NCBI GenBank assembly: GCA_014218215.1
Contig: CP043652.1
Coordinates: forward strand, 930,001-994,000
Length of the DNA stretch: 64,000 nt
Origin: Geodermatophilaceae bacterium NBWT11
GTDB lineage: Bacteria; Actinomycetota; Actinomycetes; Mycobacteriales; Geodermatophilaceae
Reading direction: 5' to 3'
In this document: piece after piece, positions 5,092 to 8,320 of the stretch
How positions within the stretch are numbered: position 1 is the stretch's first letter
Layout: each line of letters begins with the position of its first letter
Made by a program: the position numbers and the translations under genes
The notes under the pieces: model-generated
The model's input: only the letters and a program-made list of their open reading frames with translations
Told to the model about the DNA's origin: nothing
Databases searched by the model: none

Positions 5092-5373
5092 TCACGCGGC
5101 GACCTTGCGGGGCCGGCCCCGGGGCCGCTTGCGGGCGATGACGACGCCGTGGTCGAAGATCTCCCCGCCCCAGACGCCCCAGGGCTCGCCCCGGTCCAGC
5201 GCGCCGGCCAGACAGTCGGTCCGCAGGGGACAGTCGACGCAGTGCGCCTTGGCCTCCTCCAGCCGGGCCGGGGTCTCGGCGAACCACAGGTCGGGGTCCT
5301 GCACCCGGCAGGGCAGGACGGGCCCGAGCTCGGCGTGCCGGTCCGGTGCCGGGTGTTCGATCGTGTGCTGCAC
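5092..5373 (-). CDS. whiB7: WhiB7, iron-sulfur transcriptional activator of antibiotic resistance
   Basis: A 93-residue WhiB-like regulator. Four Fe-S cysteines are in place (C22, C45, C48, C54: Cx22Cx2Cx5C), followed by the GVWGGE turn (residues 66-71) and a C-terminal AT-hook RPRGRPRK (about 83-90), the feature that separates WhiB7 from other Wbl proteins. Known WhiB7 proteins bind region 4 of the principal sigma factor and AT-rich DNA just upstream of the -35 to induce intrinsic resistance genes. The start is GTG 5373 with AAGGAG eight bases upstream. Its position next to the ABC1 kinase and uvrD2 matches mycobacteria. Expression is probably autoactivated and attenuated through the leader described separately. 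Confidence 0.95.
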   Translation of the reverse strand: MQHTIEHPAPDRHAELGPVLPCRVQDPDLWFAETPARLEEAKAHCVDCPLRTDCLAGALDRGEPWGVWGGEIFDHGVVIARKRPRGRPRKVAA

Positions 5374-5459
5374 GGCCGCTCTCCTTCTCCTCGTGCCGTG
5401 ACCGGTCGACGGAGGTCCCGCCGACCGGGAGGTCGGTGGGATCGGCGGCGGACGTGACG

Positions 5460-5501
5460 GAGGCCGCGGATCCCGGGTGTGTCACCGGGTCCCGCGGCCT
5501 C
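5460..5501 (-). terminator. Candidate attenuator/terminator hairpin in the whiB7 leader
   Basis: A 17-bp stem (5501-5485 with 5476-5460, two mismatches) and an 8-base loop, lying between the upstream ORF stop (5524) and whiB7. There is no U-tract, which is common for actinobacterial terminators. A shorter hairpin with a 10-bp stem, 5440-5417, follows before the whiB7 ribosome-binding site and could sequester translation. Confidence 0.5.
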
Positions 5502-5544
5502 GAGGAGGTCCGTGCGAGCTGCTAGCTCGGAGAGGTCCTCGAGG
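5498..5544 (-). promoter_or_regulatory. Candidate anti-terminator stem overlapping the upstream ORF end
   Basis: A perfect 9-bp inverted repeat (TCCTCGAGG at 5536-5544 and CCTCGAGGA at 5498-5506, plus-strand reading) encloses a 6-bp inner hairpin (5515-5529). One arm lies in the last codons of the 71-codon upstream ORF; the other shares four bases (5498-5501) with the terminator stem, so the two structures compete. A ribosome reaching the upstream ORF stop would free the terminator, and a stalled one would favour this stem. Confidence 0.45.
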
Positions 5545-5737
5545 GCGGTGTGCCCGGGGTGGTGCTCTTCTCGTCGGTGGTGGCGCCGACCGGCAGACCG
5601 GTCATCGGGACGCGCAGCCGGACGGCGGCAGGCAGAGCGGTCCCCTGGAACCGGTCGGCCTGCGGGCTGGTGAGGCTGCCGCCACACGCGACGGAGACCC
5701 CGACGTGGATCGGGGTCTGGTAGGTGTTCGTGCCCAT
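5522..5737 (-). CDS. 71-codon upstream ORF in the whiB7 leader
   Basis: A 71-residue ORF (MGTNTYQTPIHVG...) with a strong Shine-Dalgarno GAGGAGGGG six bases before ATG 5737, ending at TAG 5524-5522. It lies entirely between the predicted whiB7 promoter and whiB7, so it would be translated from the whiB7 leader. Known whiB7/wblC leaders carry upstream ORFs that sense translation inhibition. This one is long for such an element and contains no recognised domain. Its Pro/Ser/Thr-rich end overlaps one arm of the candidate anti-terminator. It may act as a leader peptide, a small protein, or both. Confidence 0.6.
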   Translation of the reverse strand: MGTNTYQTPIHVGVSVACGGSLTSPQADRFQGTALPAAVRLRVPMTGLPVGATTDEKSTTPGTPPSRTSPS

Positions 5738-5833
5738 CTGGACCCCTCCTCTCGGGGCTCGGAGCGCGGCCGGTGGGCCGGGCTCGGGGTGGCGGTCAGG
5801 TCGTGCCCTCCGTCACCGGAGGGCGTGCTCAGG

Positions 5834-5872
5834 AGGCTAGGGGACCTCCCGGACAGCGGTCAACGCATTAAA
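5834..5872 (-). promoter_or_regulatory. whiB7 promoter with AT-rich WhiB7-type activator site
   Basis: Reading the minus strand: an AT-rich TTTAAT (5872-5867), three bases, a -35 TTGACC (5863-5858), an 18-base spacer and a -10 TAGCCT (5839-5834). An AT-rich block just upstream of the -35 is the described binding arrangement for the WhiB7 AT-hook. The implied leader to whiB7 is about 450 bases and contains the 71-codon ORF. Confidence 0.7.
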
Positions 5873-5886
5873 CGAGGCCGACCCGA

Positions 5887-7923
5887 TCAGGTGTCCGCGG
5901 CCACCGTGGCCAGCACGTCCTCGCCGTAGGCCGCCAGCTTGCGGGCGCCGATCCCGGGCAGGGCGGCGAGCTCGGTGAGGGTGCGCGGCCGGGTCTCGGC
6001 GATGGCCTGCAGGGTGGCGTCACCGAGGACGACGTAGGCCGGCACGGAGGCCGCCGTGGCGGCCTCGGTCCGCCAGCTGCGCAGGGCCTCGAACAGCTGT
6101 CCGGCGGCGCCGTCGAGGACCACCGCGGCGCGCGCGGCGGGGGTCCTCCGGGCGGCTGTGGACTCCGGGGCGATGCCGGTGAGGAAGCGGCTGCGGGGGC
6201 GGGAGCGGCGACCCCCGGGCTGGCGGGACAGCGACCAGGACAGCGTCAGCTGCTCCCGGGCGCGGGTGACCGCGACGTACAGGAGCCGGCGCTCCTCCTC
6301 CACGGCGTCCGGGCGGTTCAGCGACTGCGCGATGGGCAGCACCCCGTCGACCAGGCCGACGACGAACACGGCGTCCCACTCCAGGCCCTTGGCCGCGTGC
6401 ATCGAGGCCAGCGTGACGCCCTGGACGGTGGGGGCGTGCTGGGCGTTGGCCCGCTCGGCCAGGTGGGTGACGAAGCCGGCCAGGTCGAGCGTGGGCTGCT
6501 CGGCGACCAGGTCGACGGCGAGGTCGACCAGCGCCGACAGCGACTGCCAGCGGTCCCGGGCCGCCCCGCCGGGTGGGGGGCGGTGCTCGACCCAGCCGAC
6601 CGACGCCAGCACGTCGCGCACGGTGGGCACCAGGGCGCCGTCGTCCCGGCCGGCGGCCGCACCGCGCAACAGCAGCACCGCCTCCCGCACCTCGGGCCGC
6701 TCGAAGAACCGCTCCCCGCCCTTGAGCACGTAGGGCACCCCGGCGTCGGCCAGCGCGGACTCGTAGACCTGGGACTGGGCGTTGATCCGGAAGAGCACCG
6801 CGATCTCTGCGGCAGGCAACCCGCCGTCCACCAGCGCGCGGCAGGCCGCGGCGACCGCGGCGGCCTCCGCGGGCTCGTCGGGGTGCTCCAGGAAGCGCGG
6901 CTCGGGGCCGCCGGCTCGCTGGCCGAGCAGGCGCAGCCCCGGCAGGCCGCGACGCCGGGGCGCCATCCCGATGATCCGGTTGGCCAGGCCGACGACCTCC
7001 GGCGTGGAGCGGTAGTCGCGCTCCAGCTTCACCACCTCGGCGTCGGGGTAGCGGTCGGCGAACCCGAGCAGGTGGTCGGGGTCGGCGCCGGTGAAGGAGT
7101 AGATCGTCTGGTTGGGGTCACCGACCACGCACAGCTCGGCCCGGCCACCCAGCCAGGCGTCGAGCAGCCGCTGCTGCAGCGGGTTGACGTCCTGGTACTC
7201 GTCGACGACGAAGTGCCGGTACTGCCCGCGCACCTCCCGGGCGACGTCGCGGTGCTCCTCCAGGGCGTAGGCGGTGACCAGCAGCAGGTCCTCGAAGTCC
7301 AGCGACCCGTCGCGGGACTTGGCCTGCTCGTAGCTGGCGTACACCGCGGCGACGGCGGCCGGCTCGAACGGGGTCTCCCGGGCCGCGGCCTTCGCCCGGG
7401 CCGGGTAGTCCTCCGGGGTGGCCAGGGTGGTCTTGGCCCACTCGATCTCACTCGCCAGGTCGCGCAGGCTGGCCCGGTCGGTGGTCAACCGGTTGCGGGT
7501 GGCGGCACCGGCGACGACCCGCAGCTTGTTCTCCACCAGCTCGGGCATGGGGCCACCGAGCACCCGGGGGGCGAAGTACCGCAGCTGACGCATCGCGGCG
7601 GCGTGGAAGGTGCGGGCCTGGACACCGCCCACGCCCAGCGCGGACAGCCGGCCCCGCAGCTCCCCCGCGGCCCGGGCGGTGAACGTCACGGCCAGCACCT
7701 GCTCGGGGGTGTAGACGCCGGTGTGCACGCCGTAGGCGATCCGGTGGGTGATCGTGCGGGTCTTGCCGGTCCCCGCGCCGGCCAGGATGCAGACCGGGCC
7801 GGTCACCGCCGCCGCCGCGGTGCGCTGCTGCTCGTCCAGGCCGGCCAGCACCGCCGCCGCGCTGTCGGGCGGGGGGCTCTCCGTCGACCCCGCACGACCC
7901 GACCCGAGCTCACCGACGACCAC
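5887..7923 (-). CDS. uvrD2: ATP-dependent DNA helicase UvrD2
   Basis: A 678-residue superfamily 1 helicase. Motifs seen in order: Walker A AGAGTGKTRT (about residue 45), VDEYQDVNPLQQ (motif II), VGDPNQTIYSF (III), the EERRLLYVAVTRA segment (VI) and a C-terminal HRDC domain (last about 75 residues, ending LPGIGARKLAAYGEDVL). UvrD2 of mycobacteria shares the HRDC domain and the neighbour mrx1. The GTG at 7923 is preferred because upstream in-frame residues are not protein-like. A CAGACT six bases upstream of it could be a weak leaderless -10. Confidence 0.93.
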   Translation of the reverse strand: MVVGELGSGRAGSTESPPPDSAAAVLAGLDEQQRTAAAAVTGPVCILAGAGTGKTRTITHRIAYGVHTGVYTPEQVLAVTFTARAAGELRGRLSALGVGGVQARTFHAAAMRQLRYFAPRVLGGPMPELVENKLRVVAGAATRNRLTTDRASLRDLASEIEWAKTTLATPEDYPARAKAAARETPFEPAAVAAVYASYEQAKSRDGSLDFEDLLLVTAYALEEHRDVAREVRGQYRHFVVDEYQDVNPLQQRLLDAWLGGRAELCVVGDPNQTIYSFTGADPDHLLGFADRYPDAEVVKLERDYRSTPEVVGLANRIIGMAPRRRGLPGLRLLGQRAGGPEPRFLEHPDEPAEAAAVAAACRALVDGGLPAAEIAVLFRINAQSQVYESALADAGVPYVLKGGERFFERPEVREAVLLLRGAAAGRDDGALVPTVRDVLASVGWVEHRPPPGGAARDRWQSLSALVDLAVDLVAEQPTLDLAGFVTHLAERANAQHAPTVQGVTLASMHAAKGLEWDAVFVVGLVDGVLPIAQSLNRPDAVEEERRLLYVAVTRAREQLTLSWSLSRQPGGRRSRPRSRFLTGIAPESTAARRTPAARAAVVLDGAAGQLFEALRSWRTEAATAASVPAYVVLGDATLQAIAETRPRTLTELAALPGIGARKLAAYGEDVLATVAADT

Positions 7924-7956
7924 GGCCCGAGTCTGGCAGCCGGGTCCGACAGCCGG

Positions 7957-7983
7957 GGGAAGCATCCCCAGGGGGTCGTCGTT
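7957..7983 (+). promoter_or_regulatory. Candidate SigR/SigH-type (redox sigma) promoter of mrx1
   Basis: GGGAAG (7957-7962), then 18 bases, then GTT (7981-7983), close to the SigR/SigH consensus GGAAT-N18-GTT with one mismatch. It precedes the mycoredoxin gene by about 70 bases, a fitting target for an oxidative-stress sigma factor. Confidence 0.4.
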
Positions 7984-8056
7984 GTCCCGGGTGCGTGCGA
8001 CCGCATGCCGTCGACCCGAGTGGCCGGCGTCCGCACCACCGATGGAGGATCGCTCC

Positions 8057-8320
8057 GTGAGCGCACCGACTGCCCCCGTGACCATGTACACCACCAGCTG
8101 GTGCGGCTACTGCGTCCGGCTGAAGAAGCTCATGCAGCGTGAGGGCATCGAGTGGGCCGAGGTCAACATCGAGACCGACGACGGTGCGGCCGACCTGGTG
8201 ATGAAGGCCAACGGCGGCAACCGCACCGTGCCCACGCTGGTCTTCGCCGACGGCAGCGCCCTGACGAACCCCAGCATCGAGCAGGTCAAGAACCAGCTCG
8301 CACAGCTCCCCGGCGCGTGA
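8057..8320 (+). CDS. mrx1: Mycoredoxin 1, mycothiol-dependent glutaredoxin-like oxidoreductase
   Basis: An 87-residue thioredoxin-fold protein. The active site is the CGYC pair (C16/C19) in YTTSWCGYC, with the cis-proline loop NRTVPTLVF around residues 56-64. Mycoredoxin 1 reduces protein-mycothiol mixed disulfides, and the length and CGYC motif match the family. The GTG at 8057 has GGAGGA seven bases upstream, which decides it over an in-frame ATG at 8042. It is divergent from uvrD2, as in mycobacteria. Confidence 0.9.
   Translation: MSAPTAPVTMYTTSWCGYCVRLKKLMQREGIEWAEVNIETDDGAADLVMKANGGNRTVPTLVFADGSALTNPSIEQVKNQLAQLPGA

What the first reader, a model, noticed from the sequence alone, without database searches (positions are those of the whole stretch)
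5374..5886. whiB7 leader as a ribosome-sensing attenuator with a 71-codon upstream ORF
All parts are in one leader: a promoter with an AT-rich block exactly 3 bp upstream of a TTGACC -35, a well-initiated 71-codon ORF, a 9-bp anti-terminator whose one arm lies in that ORF's last codons, and a terminator stem sharing four bases with the other arm. Attenuation of whiB7/wblC by translation stress is known, but the long ORF and this particular geometry look distinct from the short mycobacterial leader ORFs.
Basis: partly seen in the sequence, partly recalled or inferred. Interest (0 to 1): 0.75.

Follow-up and report, generated by a model that had tools for sequence, protein, structure and literature searches.

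The report
whiB7 leader attenuator in Klenkia
A soil actinobacterium carries the known kind of RNA switch that turns on its master antibiotic-resistance regulator when ribosomes stall, and comparing many relatives suggests that the switch's long leader peptide is kept by selection as a general-purpose sensor of stalled ribosomes.

Summary
The features are real: WhiB7-type promoter, SD-led 71-codon uORF, antiterminator formed by the uORF's last codons, strong hairpin, then whiB7, in a genome that groups with Klenkia (Geodermatophilaceae). The mechanism is the published whiB7/wblC uORF attenuator, so this is a new member of a known kind. The claimed distinction fails: long uORFs are the rule (median 97 codons in 186 leaders); 71 is second-shortest of nine same-genus leaders. 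Own uORF tails pair with own downstream arms far better than swapped ones (0 of 5000 permutations). A weakness of this locus: almost no U-tract (3 T in 10, joint lowest of 180).

New here: the uORF body evolves neutrally residue by residue (pN/pS 1.09), yet its content is non-random. Of 62 mutually dissimilar uORFs, 54 hold an Arg/Lys-X-Arg/Lys macrolide/ketolide arrest motif (30.9 expected). X+P is enriched, Pro-Pro is avoided in the body (2 against 19), and 52 uORFs average 18.33 distinct residues (17.30 expected). In this window the motif is R40-L41-R42. This gives codon-level predictions for stalling inside the whiB7 uORF, which a 2025 paper calls untested.

The parts
5858..5872 (-). WhiB7-type promoter upstream half: AT block TTTAAT 5872-5867, GCG, -35 TTGACC 5863-5858
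   Evidence: position conserved in 85 of 103 family leaders
5834..5839 (-). -10 element TAGCCT (18-bp spacer)
   Evidence: transcription start (about 5827) is inferred, not mapped
5805..5824 (-). perfect 8-bp hairpin just after the inferred start, role unknown
   Evidence: sequence
5743..5750 (-). Shine-Dalgarno AGGAGGGG of the uORF
5522..5737 (-). 71-codon uORF (leader peptide), 19 of 20 amino acids present, no Trp
5612..5620 (-). codons R40-L41-R42: Arg-X-Arg (macrolide/ketolide arrest motif) within the uORF
   Evidence: Arg/Lys of such motifs kept in 136 of 136 same-genus comparisons against 36 of 180 for other body Arg/Lys
5492..5548 (-). antiterminator fold: last 9 uORF codons including the stop, with the post-stop stretch and the outer terminator 5' arm
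   Evidence: -32.3 kcal/mol, z -4.0; permutation test over 58 leaders
5460..5501 (-). terminator hairpin (17-nt arms, 8-nt loop), poor U-tract after it
   Evidence: -33.4 kcal/mol, z -5.9; 3 T in 10
5402..5436 (-). family-specific pair of overlapping hairpins (arms 5436-5431, 5428-5418, 5412-5402) between terminator and whiB7
   Evidence: CCGAC..GTCGG in 92 of 102 family leaders, 0 of 56 others
5092..5373 (-). whiB7 (93 aa, GTG start; WhiB domain and C-terminal AT-hook-like RGRPRK)
   Evidence: AT_hook match is below Pfam's cut-off

Best explanation
This is a uORF-controlled transcription attenuator of whiB7. Ribosomes that read the 71-codon uORF to its stop cover the uORF tail, so the hairpin at 5501-5460 forms and RNA polymerase stops before whiB7. 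When a ribosome stalls earlier in the uORF, the tail is free, pairs with the post-stop stretch and the 5' arm of the hairpin, and transcription runs on into whiB7; WhiB7 then feeds back on its own promoter through the AT block. The uORF body works as a sensing track rather than a peptide product: almost any translation trouble in it is enough, and selection keeps in it at least one macrolide arrest motif and a nearly full set of amino acids, and keeps out Pro-Pro, which could stall ribosomes without any drug. Shown here: anatomy, conservation, co-evolution of the two arms, content statistics. Inferred: transcription start, termination, antitermination, feedback and stalling in this organism, and that the content statistics reflect selection for sensing.
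For: uORF and hairpin called in 186 of 195 distinct leaders. Own tail plus own post-stop arm folds at a mean of -30.2 kcal/mol against -23.5 (sd 0.42) for permuted partners, 0 of 5000, in 58 thinned leaders of 182 (51 outside the family: 0 of 5000; 7 in it: 11 of 5000); a 36-nt stretch further upstream shows no such effect. Tail codons change slowly at synonymous and nonsynonymous sites (pS 0.051, pN 0.040) while the body is neutral (pN/pS 1.09, 115 pairs). +X+ in 54 of 62 dissimilar uORFs against 30.9 expected, 0 of 2000 shuffles; X+P 50 against 26.4; PP in the body 2 against 19.0; the other two reading frames show no comparable effect (z 1.8 or less in size). Amino-acid variety 18.33 against 17.30, z 7.1, 0 of 1000, replicated in 10 further uORFs with z 4.1. 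Published mechanism: passages.
Against: The window's hairpin has the joint lowest T count (3 of 10) of 180 leaders, shared by its sister L005 and by L074, so efficient termination here is doubtful. The AT block (TTTAAT; TTAATT most common in the family) is in the reported place but does not match the GAAAWY letters reported for S. coelicolor WblC (passage of PMC7157823). The family-only test with a phylogeny-aware null found no significant covarying pair. In the 10-uORF replication +X+ reached 9 of 10 against 6.6 expected (60 of 1000 shuffles as high); in a looser set 10 of 13 against 7.7 (131 of 1000): not significant. Other patterns deviate too: Gly-X-Gly is enriched, here and in the upstream-gene control; adjacent Arg/Lys totals are up (49 against 34.5) and acidic-X-acidic is down (9 against 17.0) in the bodies. 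PP is also low in the upstream-gene control (24 against 36.9, z -2.4), and over whole uORFs PP is not depleted because the tails are rich in it (39 against 37.6). XDK and XPW are not enriched. Sister L005 has only 14 distinct residues against 16.5 expected.
Confidence: 0.82

Rival explanations
1. In this lineage the attenuator is decaying or leaky: without a U-tract the hairpin hardly terminates, and whiB7 is controlled mainly by its autoregulated promoter, or by NusG- or Rho-assisted termination.
For: T count 3 of 10 in the window and sister L005, lowest of 180 together with L074; the seven other same-genus leaders have 5 of 10. L005's uORF has 63 codons and only 14 residue types.
Against: The antiterminator of the window is still a good fit: only 1 of 57 foreign post-stop stretches folds as well with its tail, and 0 of 57 foreign tails with its stretch. 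The hairpin stem is intact.
Confidence: 0.25
2. The content signature (+X+, X+P, no PP, many residue types) is not selection for sensing but a by-product of composition, local repeats or RNA constraints.
For: Gly-X-Gly is enriched too, and other pair patterns deviate; the motif ACC GGT CTG is conserved at nucleotide level inside the uORF, so RNA-level constraints do act in the body. The +X+ replication alone is not significant.
Against: Shuffles keep each peptide's composition; by number of peptides only spacing 2 is enriched for Arg/Lys among spacings 1-8 and 1-6; frames 1 and 2 show no such effect by number of peptides, though frame 2 has mildly raised pair totals at spacings 1-4 (z 2.4-3.4); Arg codons of R[LP]R vary synonymously; Arg/Lys in +X+ is kept more often than other body Arg/Lys, 2222 of 3464 against 2850 of 8124.
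Confidence: 0.3
3. The uORF encodes a small protein that acts in trans.
For: Well-initiated frames of up to 138 codons.
Against: Body pN/pS 1.09 in 115 close pairs; no Pfam or NCBIfam match for the window's uORF; 52 uORFs were found with no blastp hit at E 0.01 between any two.
Confidence: 0.04
4. The leader controls translation of whiB7 by hiding its Shine-Dalgarno sequence rather than, or besides, transcription.
For: Strong extra hairpins lie between terminator and whiB7 in the family.
Against: Own pairing of the first 30 nt with the SD region is no better than swapped pairing (646 of 5000 permutations as good in the family, 4841 of 5000 outside).
Confidence: 0.07

Closest known systems
whiB7/wblC uORF-mediated attenuator (Lee, Lee and Roe 2022, not held; Burian and Thompson 2018, not looked up; described in passages of PMC10727445, PMC11550727 and PMC4128351)
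   Same: Autoregulated promoter, SD-led uORF, terminator hairpin, antiterminator using uORF and terminator sequence, whiB7 downstream.
   Different: Here a member from the Klenkia group with a very poor U-tract and a family-specific extra hairpin pair; AT block letters differ from the S. coelicolor GAAAWY. The +X+ / residue-variety / no-PP signature was not mentioned in the passages read.
Macrolide-arrest leader peptides with an Arg-Leu-Arg motif (ErmDL; PMC8298421, abstract and passages)
   Same: An Arg-X-Arg motif in a leader frame whose stalled ribosome would refold the mRNA.
   Different: ErmDL has the motif at residues 6-8 and its stalling refolds the mRNA in favour of ErmD expression; here the motif is at residues 40-42 of a long frame and the output would be transcription.
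Amino-acid attenuators such as Mycobacterium ilvB1 (PMC13236596, passages)
   Same: uORF, antiterminator and terminator logic.
   Different: The ilvB1 uORF is rich in the codons of its own pathway; whiB7 uORFs contain nearly all residues.

Membership tests
whiB7/wblC uORF attenuator | whiB7 orthologue downstream (WhiB domain plus C-terminal AT-hook-like motif) | tested here: met
   Pfam Whib E 4.2e-15; AT_hook 14.4 bits against cut-off 17.4; of four matches in the own genome this one is the query itself, the other three are 38-47% identical
whiB7/wblC uORF attenuator | AT-rich site 3 nt upstream of the -35 element | tested here: met
   place met (described for WblC in a passage of PMC7157823); letters TTTAAT do not match the GAAAWY reported there
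whiB7/wblC uORF attenuator | SD-led uORF ending shortly before a hairpin | tested here: met
   stop lies 20 nt before the hairpin
whiB7/wblC uORF attenuator | antiterminator joining uORF tail and terminator 5' arm | tested here: met
whiB7/wblC uORF attenuator | antibiotic- or starvation-dependent readthrough | not testable with these tools
   needs RNA from cells
textbook Rho-independent terminator | GC-rich hairpin | tested here: met
textbook Rho-independent terminator | run of U right after the hairpin | tested here: not met
   3 T of 10; scan found none. So the hairpin is not filed as a textbook intrinsic terminator; whether it terminates is open
macrolide-arrest leader peptide (ErmDL type) | Arg/Lys-X-Arg/Lys in the leader frame | tested here: met
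   R40-L41-R42
macrolide-arrest leader peptide (ErmDL type) | drug-dependent ribosome arrest at the motif | not testable with these tools
   needs toeprinting; PMC8298421 notes that not every +X+ stalls (passage)

The most novel reading that the evidence does not exclude
whiB7/wblC uORFs across Actinomycetia are content-selected universal translation sensors: residue order is free to drift, but selection keeps at least one macrolide/ketolide arrest motif (+X+, also X+P), at least one codon of nearly every amino acid, and no Pro-Pro in the body, while the last codons are held as RNA. Their unusual length would be explained by the need to fit this set of triggers.
Probability: 0.5. Interest if true: 0.75.

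Novelty: new member of a known kind. Interest (0 to 1): 0.5.

Why it matters
WhiB7/WblC is a central switch of intrinsic antibiotic resistance in actinobacteria and answers to many unrelated drugs and to starvation. How one frame can sense so many inputs is open; a passage of PMC12121999 says that antibiotic-induced stalling inside the whiB7 uORF has not been tested. The content signature turns that question into codon-level predictions for any species.

Tried and rejected
Family-only covariation with a tree-based null gave no significant pair; clade splits dominate and the stems hardly vary. SD sequestration: no signal. Pairing of the mid-uORF motif GGNACCGGTCTGCC with the post-stop stretch was compared by eye on the output and dropped, because the variants did not compensate; no statistic was run. 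A trans-acting peptide was rejected because body pN/pS is about 1.

Rows dropped: of 200 loci, three other whiB-like genes of the own genome and two duplicates were left out, leaving 195. Nine had no uORF call; two of these (L034, L055) show a uORF under the looser rule, and L017, L056 and L057 hold too little upstream DNA. Some wrong picks remain in the 186: 182 passed a spacing and GGCC filter and were used for folding, 181 of 40 or more codons for the content tests, 180 for T counts; the content tests used the unfiltered set. The length count put two same-family leaders (L023, L028) outside the family (101 and 85); later calls use 103 and 83. In the replication set 48 of 172 new loci gave no call, 36 of them titled Nocardia; one of these (L253), inspected, shows a larger-loop hairpin and a long upstream stretch beyond my limits, and L215 is the named record of L007's genome. 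After removing look-alikes of earlier uORFs only 10 remained.

Many patterns were tried: 16 and a further dozen or so, without correction. In one search whole-peptide PP was below expectation in the family (47 of 103 peptides against 64.0) and above it outside (53 of 83 against 33.4); the split into body and tail came after that. Control weakness: the long-ORF fragments of the window were picked by length and may include wrong frames; the three-gene control is small; the upstream-gene and whiB7-protein controls are homologous sets, and the whiB7 protein itself is rich in +X+ (z 14.4) and poor in PP (z -6.0), so it is no fair control.

Full report
WHAT IS THERE. On the minus strand of the window, whiB7 (5373-5092, 93 aa, Pfam Whib E 4.2e-15) is preceded by a leader of about 450 nt (start inferred) and, upstream, by a UvrD-like helicase gene ending at 5887. 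The name of the window's own record was not seen. Two corrections: the antiterminator is larger than 9 bp and takes 8 bases of the hairpin's 5' arm, and the hairpin is followed by almost no U.

MORE THAN CHANCE. Antiterminator and hairpin fold well below dinucleotide shuffles (z -4.0 and -5.9; 0 of 200 shuffles each). The promoter pattern is found in 85 of 103 family leaders and in none of the shuffled copies; outside the family a looser pattern was found in 40 of 83. Open reading frames as such are cheap in this GC-rich DNA, so the evidence for the uORF is its conserved position, SD and ending.

RELATIVES. I collected 195 distinct whiB7 upstream regions from the family and the class. In 186 an SD-led uORF ending near a strong hairpin was called; in 182 of them the hairpin holds GGCC and starts 10-32 nt after the stop. 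uORF length: median 97 codons, range 28-138; 34 of 186 are 71 or shorter; in the family 3 of 101 (median 102); outside it 54 of 85 are 71 or longer. Among the nine same-genus leaders the lengths are 63-101 and the window's is the second shortest.

CO-EVOLUTION OF THE SWITCH. For 58 thinned leaders (of 182) I folded each uORF tail (36 nt) with its own post-stop stretch and the first 10 nt of the hairpin, and with those of the others. Own partners: mean -30.2 kcal/mol; permuted: -23.5, sd 0.42; 0 of 5000 permutations reach the native value (51 non-family leaders alone: 0; 7 family leaders alone: 11 of 5000). A 36-nt stretch ending 48 nt before the end of the stop codon gives no effect (4950 of 5000 as good). 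It was not visible within the family alone by a tree-based pair test, where sequences are too alike.

THE uORF BODY IS NOT A CONSERVED PEPTIDE, BUT ITS CONTENT IS NOT RANDOM. In 115 close within-genus pairs body pN/pS is 1.09, while the last 13 codons are slow at both site classes (pS 0.051, pN 0.040), as expected for an RNA element. Yet the same-genus alignment showed one fixed charged feature, R-L-R (R-P-R in one). RLR occurs in 60 of 103 family uORFs against 3.2 expected, but these are related. I then tested Arg/Lys pairs by spacing against composition-preserving shuffles: by number of peptides only spacing 2 is enriched (53 of 62 thinned uORFs against 29.6; 45 of 52 without mutual blastp similarity against 24.4, 0 of 1000). 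Arg/Lys-X-Arg/Lys is the ketolide/macrolide arrest motif, X+P another macrolide motif (PMC8298421, abstract and passages). In 62 dissimilar uORFs (52 plus 10 later ones) +X+ occurs in 54 (30.9 expected, 0 of 2000), X+P 50 times in the bodies (26.4 expected, 0 of 2000 as high), and Pro-Pro only twice in the bodies (19.0 expected, 0 of 2000 as low). Reading frames 1 and 2 of the same DNA show no comparable effect (z 1.8 or less in size).

AGAINST IT. Gly-X-Gly is also enriched, here and in the upstream-gene control; adjacent Arg/Lys totals are up (49 against 34.5), acidic-X-acidic is down (9 against 17.0); XDK and XPW are not enriched; PP over whole uORFs is not depleted because the last 12 residues are rich in it (37 against 26.7), and PP is somewhat low in the upstream-gene control too (z -2.4). 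For it: +X+ residues are kept within genera more often than other body Arg/Lys (2222 of 3464 against 2850 of 8124; the window's genus 136 of 136 against 36 of 180; weakest in one genus, 373 of 904 against 743 of 2192), and the Arg codons vary synonymously, so the constraint looks peptide-level.

AMINO-ACID VARIETY. The 52 dissimilar uORFs contain on average 18.33 different residues; random draws from their pooled composition give 17.30 (sd 0.145; 0 of 1000). Frames 1 and 2 give z of -1.8 and -0.6, upstream-gene ends -5.9. Differences between species in composition would lower, not raise, this number (inference). The window's uORF has 19 of 20 (no Trp), which alone is unremarkable (probability 0.14); its sister L005 has only 14.

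REPLICATION. Before fetching leaders from further orders I wrote both hypotheses down. Of 172 new loci, counting the named set that was fetched, but not analysed for this, before that note, 124 gave a uORF; after removing every one with similarity to an earlier uORF, 10 remained. Variety replicated (19.10 against 17.86, z 4.1, 0 of 1000; looser set of 13: z 4.4). +X+ went the same way (9 of 10 against 6.6; 10 of 13 against 7.7) but is not significant (60 and 131 of 1000). X+P and the body/tail split of Pro-Pro were looked at only afterwards, on the pooled 62, so they are exploratory.

MECHANISM. The published model, as passages of PMC11550727, PMC10727445 and PMC13393426 state it, fits this locus: full translation of the uORF favours the hairpin, stalling favours the antiterminator. 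With a stall at codon 41 (5617-5615) the antiterminator arm starting at 5548 lies 67 nt downstream and would be free. I add that the length and the drifting but complete content of the uORF look like a sensing track: an uncharged tRNA or a drug-stalled ribosome almost anywhere in it would do. Induction by starvation is reported (passages). A 2025 paper notes that stalling inside the whiB7 uORF has not been tested (PMC12121999, passage).

THE WEAK POINT OF THIS LOCUS. T in the 10 nt after the hairpin: window 3, sister L005 3, the seven other same-genus leaders 5, leaders outside the family mean 6.7; only one other leader of 180 (L074) is as low. The hairpin here may be leaky or need NusG; that is open.

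NOVELTY. No title or abstract opening in the listings of six library searches mentioned +X+ motifs or residue variety in whiB7/wblC uORFs, nor did the passages read. Lee 2022 and Poulton 2024 are not held and Burian and Thompson 2018 was not looked up, so this is no proof. The locus itself is a new member of a known kind.

Noticed in passing
window 5436-5402 (minus strand): Three arms that can form two mutually exclusive hairpins (CCGACC / GGTCGGCGG / CCGTCGACCGG) between terminator and whiB7; arm1:arm2 motif in 92 of 102 family leaders and 0 of 56 others, arm2:arm3 in 77 and 7. Function unknown.
   Followed up: partly
window 5602-5594 (minus strand; variant ACC GCT CTG at 5641-5633) and family uORFs: In-frame motif ACC GGT CTG (Thr-Gly-Leu) recurs inside uORF bodies: 76 of 76 occurrences of ACCGGNCTG are in frame 0, and GGT is used in 58 of 78 TGL sites against 174 of 1085 Gly codons, so a nucleotide-level constraint is likely. 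The letters CCGGTCTGA end the uORF in several other leaders such as L038, L047, L048 and L053. Unexplained.
   Followed up: partly
window 5824-5805 (minus strand): Perfect 8-bp hairpin right after the inferred transcription start; possibly an mRNA-protecting 5' hairpin.
   Followed up: no
L005 (Klenkia MAG) leader: Sister leader shares the eroded U-tract and has a 63-codon uORF with only 14 residue types; relaxed selection in this pair is possible.
   Followed up: partly
genomes G093 and G280: Each has two whiB7-like matches, suggesting a second copy.
   Followed up: no
window 7748-8320 (plus strand): ORF whose C-terminal part contains a CGYC-type glutaredoxin/mycoredoxin-like sequence next to the helicase gene (by eye, not searched).
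   Followed up: no
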